Source of the DNA: Olegusella massiliensis
GTDB taxonomy: Bacteria; Actinomycetota; Coriobacteriia; Coriobacteriales; Atopobiaceae
Assembly: GCF_900078545.1 (NCBI RefSeq)
Contig: NZ_FLLS01000002.1
Span: 1,497,404-1,561,403 of the forward strand
Length of the DNA: 64,000 bases
Direction: 5' to 3'
Shown: in pieces, positions 41,789 through 44,750 of the stretch
How the letters are laid out: the number at the start of each line of letters is the position of its first letter
Position numbering within the stretch: the stretch's first letter is position 1
The notes under the pieces: model-generated
Told to the model about the DNA's origin: nothing
Database searches by the model: none
The model's input: the letters and a program-made list of their open reading frames with translations, nothing else
Position numbers and translations under genes: made by a program

Positions 41789-43081
41789 TTAGGCCAAAGC
41801 AGCAAATGCTTGCTCAAGGTCACTAAGGATATCTTTGGGGTCTTCCAAGCCACAGGACAGACGAATCATACCAGGGTAGATGCCTGCAGCCAGTAGCTGC
41901 TCATCGGTGAGCTGGCGGTGGGTCGAAGTGGCAGGATGCAAAGCGCAGGTTTGCGAATCAGCGACATGTACCTCCTGAGACACAAGCTTCAGATGATCAA
42001 GTACTGCCGCCGCACGGTCACGGCTGCCGCCCTTGGAGCCCTTGCCATCTCCTACCACAAAGGAAATGACTCCGCAGGGGCCATCAGGTAGATACTTATT
42101 TGCGAGCTCATGATAGGAATTGGATTTTAGGCCAGGGAAGTTGACCGAATCTACCTCGGGACGCGCCTCAAGATATTCGGCAACTTTTTGAGCGGTACTT
42201 GTATGACGCCTCATACGAAGTGCAAGGGTCTCGAGTGTCTCATTGAGAATAAAGGCATTGGTTGCAGGGGGATTGACGCCAAAATCACGCATGAGCTGCA
42301 TACGAGCCTTCATAATAAAGGCAATCTTGCCATAATCACGCGTATAGATGATGCCATGGTATGACTCATCAGGTTCGGTAAAGTCAGGGAAACGACCAGA
42401 AGCAGCCCAATCAAATTTGCCTGAGTCAACAATGATGCCGCCGACCGTTATGGCATGACCATCCATGTACTTGGTAGTGGAGTGTATAACGATGTCAGCG
42501 CCCCATTCGATAGGACGGCAGAGTACAGGCGTGGGGAAGGTATTATCCACAACCAAGGGCAATCCAGCTTCGTGAGCTGCAGAAGCAAAAGTCTCTAGGT
42601 CAAGTACAGCGAGAGCAGGGTTAGCAACAACTTCGCCAAAAACAAGCTTGGTTTCAGGACGAATAGCTGCGGCGATTTCCTCTTTTGTTGCACGAGGAGA
42701 GACGAAAGTGGTGGTAATGCCAAACTTAGGCAGGGTGGTAGTAAAGAGATTTACCGTACCACCGTAAATCGTGGAGGAAACCACACAGTGATCGCCTGCC
42801 TTGCAGAGGTTGGCAACGGTCAGGAAGCTTGCCATCTGACCAGAGCTTGTCAGCATAGCTGCAGCGCCGCCCTCAAGATTTGCAATTTTTTCTTCTACTG
42901 CAGAGCAGGTGGGGTTGGTAATGCGGGAATACATATGACCCTGCTCGGGATGATCAAAAAGATTTGCCACTGCATCGGTTGTGTCATAGTGAAAAGTGGT
43001 GCTGAGGTAGATTGGCAAGCAGCGAGGCTCGCCATTGCCTGCCTGATATCCTCCATGGATGCAGGTAGTATCGATGCCCAT
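41789..43081 (-). CDS. metY: O-acetylhomoserine sulfhydrylase/aminocarboxypropyltransferase
   Basis: A 430-residue Cys/Met-metabolism PLP enzyme that makes homocysteine from O-acetylhomoserine and sulfide or methanethiol. TTCIHGGYQ, YSRITNPTCSAVEEKIANLEGG, VVDNTFPTPVLCRP, HSTTKYMDGHA with the PLP lysine and GMIRLSCGLED are typical; the length and the insert around 230-270 favour MetY over MetB. The leader of about 110 nt contains no S-box that I can recognise. It ends at a clear terminator. Confidence 0.92.
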   Translation of the reverse strand: MGIDTTCIHGGYQAGNGEPRCLPIYLSTTFHYDTTDAVANLFDHPEQGHMYSRITNPTCSAVEEKIANLEGGAAAMLTSSGQMASFLTVANLCKAGDHCVVSSTIYGGTVNLFTTTLPKFGITTTFVSPRATKEEIAAAIRPETKLVFGEVVANPALAVLDLETFASAAHEAGLPLVVDNTFPTPVLCRPIEWGADIVIHSTTKYMDGHAITVGGIIVDSGKFDWAASGRFPDFTEPDESYHGIIYTRDYGKIAFIMKARMQLMRDFGVNPPATNAFILNETLETLALRMRRHTSTAQKVAEYLEARPEVDSVNFPGLKSNSYHELANKYLPDGPCGVISFVVGDGKGSKGGSRDRAAAVLDHLKLVSQEVHVADSQTCALHPATSTHRQLTDEQLLAAGIYPGMIRLSCGLEDPKDILSDLEQAFAALA

Positions 43082-43194: not shown

Positions 43195-44535
43195 ATGCTT
43201 GACAGCATACAAAAGCTTTGTGTAAGCGATGAAAATTTGCAGGAGCATCTTCTACAAAGTCAAACTGTGTGGACAGGCAAAATTTTTTCGGTTGAAACCT
43301 CTCAGGTGAGCTGTCCTGATGGGAGGCTTGCGTATAGAGAGCTGGCGCGTCACCATGGGGGCGCTGCTGTGGCAGTCATACGCGATGGCAAGCTGTGTTT
43401 GGTGCGTCAGTGGCGTGTATCGGTGGATCAGCTGACCCTTGAAATTCCAGCAGGCAAACTCGAGTCAGGAGAAGATCCTACGGTTTGCGCTGCTCGCGAA
43501 CTTAAAGAAGAAACGGGCCTTGTGGCCAGCTCACTTGAGCTTTTGGCAACCTCGTATGGTTCGATTGGTTTTACTGATGAACATACGATGATTTATCTTG
43601 CGCATGGCGTGCATCAAAGTGATGCAATCCCTGATAAAGGTGAGTTTGTTGATGTCGTGTGGCTTGATATCTCCGAAGTTTTAGATGCCGTCAAAGCAGG
43701 ACTTATTTGTGATTCCAAAACTATCATTGCCGCCAGCATGGCTGCCCAAGCACTACGACGTCGTGCTCAACTAAAGTCAGTAATCTATGGGCTTGCAATA
43801 GGGGATGCCTTGGGCGTGCCGTATGAGTTTTGTGAGCGCGGAAGTTTTTGTTGCACAGATATGGTGGGGCACGGAACACATAATCAAGAGGCAGGAACAT
43901 TTTCGGATGATACCAGTATGACTTTGGCAACCTGTGACAGCATTCGTGTGCGTGGCTTGATTGACCTTGCTGATATGCGCGAGCGCTTTTGCCGCTGGTT
44001 ATATGAAGGCGCATATACGCCTGATGGCATTTGTTTTGATGTGGGCAATACAACTGCAGTGGCCTTAAGACAGGGATATGGCTGTGAGGGCGAGTGGGAT
44101 AACGGTAATGGTTCGCTTATGCGCATTGCTCCTCTTGCTTTTATCGCGGCAAGTGATAAGGATATTCGTGCGGTTTCAGCTATTACTCATGCACATGCCT
44201 TGAGCTGTAGTGTCTGTGTGAGCTTTGTTCACATCCTAAGGCGTTTAGCAGCTGGTGCGACCGCGGCGGACGTGGCAGGAGAGTGGAAGGGGCAGCCTGC
44301 GCCTGCATCCAGTGGTTTTGTGCAGCATGCCTATGATGCAGCCCTTTGGTGTTTAGCAAATACGTCAAGCTATCGGGATTGTGTACTTGCTGCAGTTAAT
44401 CTGGGTTCGGACACGGATACCACTGCTGCTATTGCTGGCGCATTGGCAGGTGTGCTCTATGGTTATGATGCTATTCCCGTCGAGTGGGTTTCTGCTTTGC
44501 GCGCAAAAGATTTGATCGAGTCCTGCTTGTTTTAA
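43195..44535 (+). CDS. Nudix ADP-ribose pyrophosphatase fused to ADP-ribosylglycohydrolase
   Basis: A 446-residue two-enzyme protein. Residues about 20-185 are an ADP-ribose-type Nudix hydrolase with a complete box, Gly87 to Leu109 (G-x5-E-x7-REL-x-EE-x-GL), and the upstream LEIPAGKLESG typical of NudF-like proteins. Residues about 193-446 are a DraG-type glycohydrolase with GDALGVPYEF (203-212), FSDDT (236-240), GNGSLMRIAP (304-313) and GSDTDTTAAIAGALAG (404-419), so the metal ligands look intact. Inference: the second domain frees ADP-ribose from protein, nucleic acid or small molecules, and the first converts it to AMP and ribose-5-phosphate. ATG 43195 has GAGG eight bases upstream. Confidence 0.9.
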   Translation: MLDSIQKLCVSDENLQEHLLQSQTVWTGKIFSVETSQVSCPDGRLAYRELARHHGGAAVAVIRDGKLCLVRQWRVSVDQLTLEIPAGKLESGEDPTVCAARELKEETGLVASSLELLATSYGSIGFTDEHTMIYLAHGVHQSDAIPDKGEFVDVVWLDISEVLDAVKAGLICDSKTIIAASMAAQALRRRAQLKSVIYGLAIGDALGVPYEFCERGSFCCTDMVGHGTHNQEAGTFSDDTSMTLATCDSIRVRGLIDLADMRERFCRWLYEGAYTPDGICFDVGNTTAVALRQGYGCEGEWDNGNGSLMRIAPLAFIAASDKDIRAVSAITHAHALSCSVCVSFVHILRRLAAGATAADVAGEWKGQPAPASSGFVQHAYDAALWCLANTSSYRDCVLAAVNLGSDTDTTAAIAGALAGVLYGYDAIPVEWVSALRAKDLIESCLF

Positions 44536-44674: not shown

Positions 44675-44750
44675 GCGCCCTTAGCTCAATGGATAGAGCA
44701 CCAGTCTTCTAAACTGTAGGTTGGCGGTTCGAGTCCGCCAGGGCGCACCA
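44675..44750 (+). tRNA. tRNA-Arg(TCT)
   Basis: A 76-nt cloverleaf with CCA encoded. Acceptor GCGCCCT pairs with AGGGCGC; anticodon loop CTTCTAA gives TCT; T-loop GGTTCGAGTCC. It reads AGA codons. Confidence 0.95.

What the first reader, a model, noticed from the sequence alone, without database searches (positions are those of the whole stretch)
43195..44535. Nudix and ADP-ribosylglycohydrolase fused in one protein
Both active sites are complete (Nudix box 87-109; SDDT, GNGSLMR and GSDTDT in the DraG-like part). The fusion would release ADP-ribose and immediately cleave it to AMP and ribose-5-phosphate. The linked steps suggest clearance of ADP-ribosylation marks, or of an NAD-derived toxin or signal, without free ADP-ribose build-up.
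Basis: partly seen in the sequence, partly recalled or inferred. Interest (0 to 1): 0.65.

Follow-up and report, generated by a model that had tools for sequence, protein, structure and literature searches.

The report
ADP-ribosylation eraser fused to Nudix hydrolase
In two closely related Atopobiaceae (oral actinobacterial) species, an enzyme predicted to remove ADP-ribose from proteins has been joined, in frame, onto the end of a neighbouring housekeeping enzyme predicted to break free ADP-ribose into AMP and ribose-5-phosphate, giving a recently born two-step protein whose parts are both well known but whose combination I did not find described.

Summary
Window 43195-44535 (+) is one uninterrupted 446-aa ORF: NudF-type Nudix domain (aa 1-186) joined to a short DraG/ARH-type ADP-ribosylglycohydrolase (aa 190-446). 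It is not a sequencing frameshift: an independent genome, Atopobium sp. oral taxon 810, encodes the same full-length fusion (91% identity), and both halves are under purifying selection (dN/dS 0.13 and 0.10). No other fusion turned up in 140 family, 297 order or 396 sampled phylum genomes, or in plasmids, phages or viral contigs. The Nudix half is a family-wide syntenic gene that normally ends just before tRNA-Arg(UCU); in three same-genus species that gap holds no ARH, and in two of them the ARH is a separate gene elsewhere. So the fusion is recent, lineage-specific, and joined two resident genes. The closest solved ARH structures are immunity proteins against ADP-ribosyltransferase toxins; stand-alone relatives sit in accessory islands with Macro, once in an ARH-Macro-NADAR row. 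The window's genome has no Macro, NADAR or DarT and only this ARH. Best reading: an orphan eraser that strips ADP-ribose from proteins, with the product destroyed by the attached Nudix. Substrates and coupling are inferred; the Nudix lacks the proline that marks ADP-ribose specialists.

The parts
43195..44535 (+). Fused gene, 446 aa: Nudix + ADP-ribosylglycohydrolase
   Evidence: One open frame; both Pfam families over cut-off; full-length orthologue 91% identical in Atopobium sp. oral taxon 810
43195..43752 (+). Nudix domain, NudF / ADP-ribose pyrophosphatase type, aa 1-186
   Evidence: PF00293; best solved relatives 8wv3/9jax ACT ADP-ribose pyrophosphatase E 7.5e-34 and 5c7q Bd-NDPSase E 6.4e-28; stand-alone homologues about 50-60% identical across Atopobiaceae
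43453..43521 (+). Nudix box GKLESGEDPTVCAARELKEETGL, aa 87-109
   Evidence: Position computed; GX5EX7REUXEEXGU complete; core residues invariant in 25 sequences
43558..43581 (+). GSIGFTDE, aa 122-129: Ile stands where ADP-ribose specialists have Pro (SPGF)
   Evidence: Aligned against ACT SPGF and Bd-NDPSase VIGY and family homologues, most of them APGF/SPGF
43711..43830 (+). Junction, aa 173-212: Nudix C-terminal helix runs into the first ARH helix with no linker
   Evidence: Both AlphaFold2 models give one helix, 174-207 and 174-210, at moderate confidence; stand-alone Nudix proteins end at about this point
43762..44532 (+). ARH (DraG-like) domain, aa 190-446
   Evidence: PF03747; ARH model pLDDT about 91-99 from aa 190 on; nearest folds Tri1 6dre, Listeria ARH immunity 8za7, DraG 2woc/2woe
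43825..43827 (+). Glu211, flap glutamate of GDALGVPYEF
   Evidence: Invariant in 38 ARH sequences
43903..43914 (+). SDDT metal-ligand motif, aa 237-240
   Evidence: Asp238 and Asp239 invariant
44038..44040 (+). Asp282, equivalent of DraG-specific Asp97
   Evidence: Aligns with the residue that is D in 2woc and N in the D97N structure 2woe; nearly invariant
44404..44424 (+). GSDTDTT metal-ligand motif, aa 404-410
   Evidence: Asp406, Asp408, Thr409 invariant
44675..44750 (+). tRNA-Arg (anticodon UCU) that directly follows the stand-alone Nudix gene in relatives
   Evidence: ARAGORN; Nudix stop to tRNA gap 6-106 bp in G033, G034, G044, G040, G095
41789..43081 (-). Divergent O-acetylhomoserine sulfhydrylase-like gene (named by eye); conserved upstream neighbour of the Nudix gene in the genus
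   Evidence: Same neighbour in G031, G033, G034 and a remnant in G032

Best explanation
The gene is a recent, real, selected fusion that makes a bifunctional clean-up enzyme. The C-terminal ARH domain (binuclear metal centre, DraG type) removes ADP-ribose from modified macromolecules, most likely ADP-ribosyl-arginine on proteins put there by an incoming ADP-ribosyltransferase (rival toxin or phage); the N-terminal NudF-type Nudix domain then splits the released ADP-ribose into AMP and ribose-5-phosphate. It arose when a stand-alone ARH, one of a family that moves through accessory islands of Coriobacteriia, came to lie between the resident Nudix gene and its tRNA-Arg and was joined in frame. 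Shown here: domains, residues, fusion, distribution, origin, selection, phylogeny, context. Inferred: Arg-ADP-ribose as target, ADP-ribose as Nudix substrate, coupling of the steps, and the anti-toxin or anti-phage role.
For: Both domains over Pfam cut-offs with all catalytic residues. Same fusion in a second species, dN/dS 0.126 (Nudix) and 0.10 (ARH), so both halves are maintained. Domain trees: the ARH groups with the stand-alone ARHs of the same genus at 100/99 support; the Nudix groups with the same-genus Nudix at 77/88. Same-genus species have Nudix and tRNA-Arg with no ARH between and, in G033 and G034, ARH at another locus. Closest solved ARH relatives are enzymatic immunity proteins: Tri1 (6dre) and the ARH of the Listeria ART-ARH pair (8za7); ARH-type immunity by de-ADP-ribosylation is shown experimentally for BAH (PMC11699363). 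Stand-alone relatives lie within 10 kb of a Macro gene in 9 of 52 family genomes against about 0.85 expected, and G034 has ARH-Macro-NADAR in a row. The window genome has no Macro, NADAR or DarT and only this ARH. Nudix nearest relatives hydrolyse ADP-ribose (PMC12926040).
Against: No assay. No ADP-ribosyltransferase, toxin or phage gene beside the fusion, and DarT is the only ART family I searched for in the genome. ARH specificity cannot be read from sequence; it scores below the NCBIfam equivalog cut-offs for both Tri1 (160 against 490) and DraG (122 against 337). The Nudix lacks the ADP-ribose-marker proline. A second NudF-like enzyme in the genome makes the attached one partly redundant. 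Macro proximity is not independent evidence: 7 of the 9 genomes belong to one genus.
Confidence: 0.5

Rival explanations
1. Endogenous NAD-metabolite salvage: the fusion processes O-acetyl-ADP-ribose (and spontaneous ADP-ribose adducts) from the cell's own sirtuin, the ARH half deacetylating it to ADP-ribose and the Nudix half recycling that to AMP and ribose-5-phosphate.
For: The genome has one sirtuin (SIR2, E 4.8e-52) and no Macro domain that could do the same job. ARH-family enzymes are known to release ADP-ribose from O-acetyl-ADP-ribose (PMC9503650). The locus is metabolic and the Nudix is a family-wide housekeeping gene.
Against: The sirtuin gene is not linked to the fusion. Within the ARH family, O-acetyl-ADP-ribose hydrolysis is described for ARH3, whereas this ARH is closer to Tri1/DraG. 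Many Atopobiaceae have the Nudix without any close ARH.
Confidence: 0.2
2. Neutral fusion: two enzymes that work independently became one polypeptide when the Nudix stop codon was lost, without functional coupling; the ARH gains the expression of a housekeeping gene.
For: Found only in two sister species; no linker and no established interface; unfused versions of both parts coexist in the genus; the genome has another NudF-like enzyme.
Against: The fusion persisted through a divergence of about 0.4 synonymous changes per site with both halves constrained; the two predicted activities are consecutive steps on one metabolite, which is unlikely to be chance.
Confidence: 0.22
3. The Nudix half acts mainly on other NDP-sugars or dinucleotides, so the two active sites serve unrelated substrates.
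For: Ile at the ADP-ribose-marker proline; Asp-X-Lys motif; sequence and fold close to Bd-NDPSase, which prefers GDP-mannose (PMC4629899).
Against: The same Asp-X-Lys is present in ACT, a proven ADP-ribose pyrophosphatase and the best sequence match (PMC12926040); most stand-alone orthologues keep the Pro.
Confidence: 0.15

Closest known systems
ARH-type immunity proteins: Tri1 (PDB 6dre/6drh), ARH of the Listeria ART-ARH pair (8za7), BAH of Bacteroides stercoris (PMC11699363)
   Same: Same fold and catalytic residues; 31-33% identity; 6dre and 8za7 are the closest solved ARH structures by sequence and by fold
   Different: Those are stand-alone and encoded with a toxin; here no toxin is adjacent and the ARH is fused to a Nudix. 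It misses the NCBIfam Tri1 cut-off
DraG, ADP-ribosyl-dinitrogenase-reductase hydrolase (2woc, TIGR02662)
   Same: Same fold; keeps the DraG-specific Asp97 equivalent, Asp282
   Different: 122 bits against a cut-off of 337; shorter; DraT and nitrogenase were not looked for
NudF / ADP-ribose pyrophosphatases and NDP-sugar hydrolases (ACT 8wv3, Rv1700 1mk1, Bd-NDPSase 5c7q)
   Same: Complete Nudix box, similar length and fold
   Different: Ile replaces the ADP-ribose-marker Pro; fused at its C-terminus to an ARH
ARG-centric anti-ADP-ribosylation systems predicted in PMC9503650 (2022), section 3.8
   Same: The same two activities are predicted to work together: ARH releases ADP-ribose and a Nudix (in an HTH regulator) senses or processes it; Macro, NADAR, WYL, vWA and HIRAN partners also occur near the stand-alone ARHs studied here
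   Different: There the Nudix is a regulator sensor in a separate protein with a DNA-binding domain; here the Nudix is a catalytic-type NudF enzyme without HTH, covalently joined, outside any such operon

Membership tests
ADP-ribosylglycohydrolase family (PF03747) | Profile match over curated cut-off | tested here: met
   181.2 bits against 26.2
ADP-ribosylglycohydrolase family (PF03747) | Binuclear metal ligands and flap glutamate | tested here: met
   Glu211, Asp238, Asp239, Asp406, Asp408, Thr409 present and invariant
ADP-ribosylglycohydrolase family (PF03747) | Hydrolysis of an ADP-ribosyl bond | not testable with these tools
   Needs assay
DraG equivalog (TIGR02662) | Score over NCBIfam cut-off | tested here: not met
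   122 against 337 bits
Tri1 equivalog (NF041672) | Score over NCBIfam cut-off | tested here: not met
   160.3 against 490 bits
Tri1-like immunity protein | Encoded next to a cognate ADP-ribosyltransferase toxin | tested here: not met
   Neighbours are metabolic genes
Nudix hydrolase (PF00293) | Complete Nudix box GX5EX7REUXEEXGU | tested here: met
   aa 87-109
ADP-ribose pyrophosphatase (NudF) | Proline about 15-16 residues after the Nudix-box glycine | tested here: not met
   Ile aligned with the Pro of ACT SPGF; the rule is quoted in PMC4629899
ADP-ribose pyrophosphatase (NudF) | ADP-ribose as preferred substrate | not testable with these tools
   Needs assay
NDP-sugar hydrolase (NDPSase) | Asp-X-Lys on the C-terminal helix | tested here: met
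   Asp173-Ser-Lys175, but ACT, an ADP-ribose pyrophosphatase, also has it, so not decisive
[quoted passage not shown]
   Pfam finds only NUDIX and ADP_ribosyl_GH
ARG-centric anti-ADP-ribosylation operon (PMC9503650) | ARH in an operon with Nudix- or WYL-HTH regulator, phosphatase or chaperone genes | tested here: not met
   Not at the window locus; some stand-alone relatives have WYL, HIRAN, vWA-like, Macro or NADAR nearby

The most novel reading that the evidence does not exclude
A self-contained 'erase and destroy' enzyme: one polypeptide that strips ADP-ribose from proteins and hands it directly to an attached ADP-ribose pyrophosphatase along a rigid helical junction, evolved as orphan immunity in a lineage that has no Macro and no NADAR hydrolase.
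Probability: 0.25. Interest if true: 0.55.

Novelty: new variant of a known kind. Interest (0 to 1): 0.4.

Why it matters
If both activities are real, this is a natural fusion of two steps that comparative genomics had only predicted to act together (ADP-ribose release by ARH and its processing by a Nudix, PMC9503650). Because the fused and unfused states exist within one genus, with the Nudix at the same locus, it gives a clean natural experiment on whether joining the steps changes efficiency, substrate range or protection from ADP-ribosylating toxins. The parts themselves are known families, so the surprise is moderate.

Tried and rejected
Frameshift or assembly joining of two genes: rejected, the same fusion is in an independent genome. 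Horizontal arrival of a ready-made fusion: rejected as unlikely, since both domains group with stand-alone same-genus genes and no fusion was found elsewhere. Integration at the tRNA by a mobile element: no tRNA-derived repeat of 10 bp or more found between 43000 and 44674, so this stays a suggestion only. DarT, Macro or NADAR partner in the same genome: none. NrtR-like regulator reading: no HTH. One large mixed alignment (A1) put Nudix rows on the ARH and was discarded; A5 was also poor. Literature searches for a Nudix-ARH fusion found no description.

Full report
What is there. The finding lies in a 1.8-Mb genome of an Atopobiaceae member; its nearest relative held is Atopobium sp. oral taxon 810. 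Window 43195-44535 (+) encodes one 446-residue protein without interruption. Pfam gives NUDIX (70.9 bits, cut-off 21.1) at aa 56-163 and ADP_ribosyl_GH (181.2 bits, cut-off 26.2) from aa 196 on. The Nudix box is complete at aa 87-109. The ARH part has Glu211, Asp238-Asp239, Asp282 (the DraG Asp97 position: D in 2woc, N in the D97N structure 2woe), Thr331-His332, Asp406, Asp408 and Thr409.

It is real. Atopobium sp. oral taxon 810 has the same fused protein, 91% identical, with no stop. Nei-Gojobori dN/dS between the two is 0.126 for the Nudix half and 0.10 for the ARH half, so both halves are constrained. A frameshift artefact would not recur in a second genome nor show this selection.

It is rare and recent. 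Among 140 genomes of the family, 297 of the order and 396 sampled from the phylum, only these two carry a match spanning both domains. In the plasmid and phage collections no place covers 80% of the query and the rows shown are ARH only; viral contigs have none. A strongly diverged fusion, or one in another phylum, could have been missed. The Nudix half is a resident gene of the family: stand-alone orthologues (about 50-60% identity) lie beside fructose-1-phosphate-kinase-like and ptsI-like genes in many genera, and directly before tRNA-Arg(UCU) in several: stop-to-tRNA gap 91 bp in G033, 106 in G034, 6 in G044, 57 in G040, 17 in G095. In the window the ARH occupies that gap, and the tRNA follows 139 bp after its stop. 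G033 and G034 carry the ARH (72-73% identity) at other loci. Trees of each domain put the window with same-genus stand-alone genes (ARH 100/99; Nudix 77/88). The simplest history is joining of two genes already present in the genus.

The junction. Stand-alone Nudix proteins of the genus end within a few residues of the fusion point. Two AlphaFold2 models, one deep in Nudix rows and one deep in ARH rows, both give a single helix from residue 174 to 207-210 across the junction, at moderate confidence there. Neither model is good for both domains at once, so domain orientation, and therefore channelling, is not established.

What the ARH half probably does. By sequence and by fold the nearest solved proteins are Tri1 (6dre, ADP-ribosyltransferase toxin/immunity pair) and the ARH of a Listeria ART-ARH effector-immunity pair (8za7), then DraG. 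It passes neither the Tri1 nor the DraG NCBIfam equivalog cut-off, so I file it only as an ARH of the DraG/Tri1 branch. Experimental precedent for an ARH-family enzyme reversing arginine ADP-ribosylation as immunity is BAH (PMC11699363). Stand-alone relatives in Coriobacteriia occur in accessory gene islands, often in several copies. A Macro gene lies within 10 kb in 9 of 52 ARH-bearing family genomes against about 0.85 expected (seven of the nine are one genus, so not independent). In G034, of the same genus as the window, the row is ARH-Macro-NADAR, three unrelated ADP-ribose-removing families side by side. In G033, WYL and HIRAN proteins lie within about 6 kb. These partners match the ARG-centric systems predicted in PMC9503650 section 3.8 to counter ADP-ribosylation by invaders.

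What the Nudix half probably does. The best matches are the ADP-ribose pyrophosphatase ACT of Bacillus methanolicus (E 7.5e-34) and the broad NDP-sugar hydrolase of Bdellovibrio. The proline used to recognise ADP-ribose specialists (PMC4629899) is Ile here; most stand-alone orthologues keep Pro, but Ile recurs in several genera. The Asp-X-Lys motif proposed to mark NDP-sugar hydrolases is present, but ACT has it too. ADP-ribose remains the most likely substrate, with real doubt.

Genome context. The window's genome holds no Macro, NADAR or DarT and one sirtuin, and only this one ARH. It has three Nudix proteins: the fusion, a second NudF-like enzyme 47% identical and an NADH-pyrophosphatase-like protein. 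The sister genome with the fusion also lacks Macro and NADAR, while the three same-genus species without the fusion have Macro. This is suggestive only: five species.

How it most likely works. Shown: two complete active-site sets in one selected polypeptide. Inferred: ARH removes ADP-ribose, probably from arginine of proteins modified by an outside ADP-ribosyltransferase; the Nudix splits the freed ADP-ribose to AMP and ribose-5-phosphate. Rivals are salvage of sirtuin-made O-acetyl-ADP-ribose, a neutral fusion, and a Nudix with an unrelated substrate.

Verdict. New variant of a known kind: known parts, rare recent combination, good natural comparison of fused and unfused states within one genus.

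Noticed in passing
L047:4943-7662 (G034:C72, same genus): ARH, Macro and NADAR genes in a row on one strand, beside a 3H-domain regulator and, by eye, NAD biosynthesis genes (nadC, nadB, nadA): three unrelated ADP-ribose-removing families side by side.
   Followed up: partly
L052, L055, L066, L070, L071, L075, L084, L092 (e.g. L052:5078-5833 -): A metallo-beta-lactamase-fold protein of about 251 aa is recurrently encoded directly upstream of the stand-alone ARH, in L052 overlapping its start; possible unrecognised functional partner.
   Followed up: partly
L050/L051, L052, L055, L066: ARH genes in two or three copies about 8-14 kb apart within largely same-strand accessory islands containing, by eye or Pfam, DUF262-like, toxin-antitoxin, SLFN_AlbA_2, HIRAN and DUF1016-like genes.
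   Followed up: partly
window 43567-43569 and L105, L107, L113, L116, L121: The ADP-ribose-marker proline of NudF is replaced by Ile in several Atopobiaceae Nudix orthologues, while other relatives keep Pro: repeated substitution at a specificity position.
   Followed up: no
L047:6673-7662: The G034 stand-alone ARH ORF has an N-terminal extension of about 70 aa with no Pfam match (start codon not verified).
   Followed up: no
L012:1450-2274 -: Second NudF-like Nudix in the window's own genome, 47% identical to the fused Nudix, with Cys at the proline position and an N-terminal extension (start uncertain).
   Followed up: no
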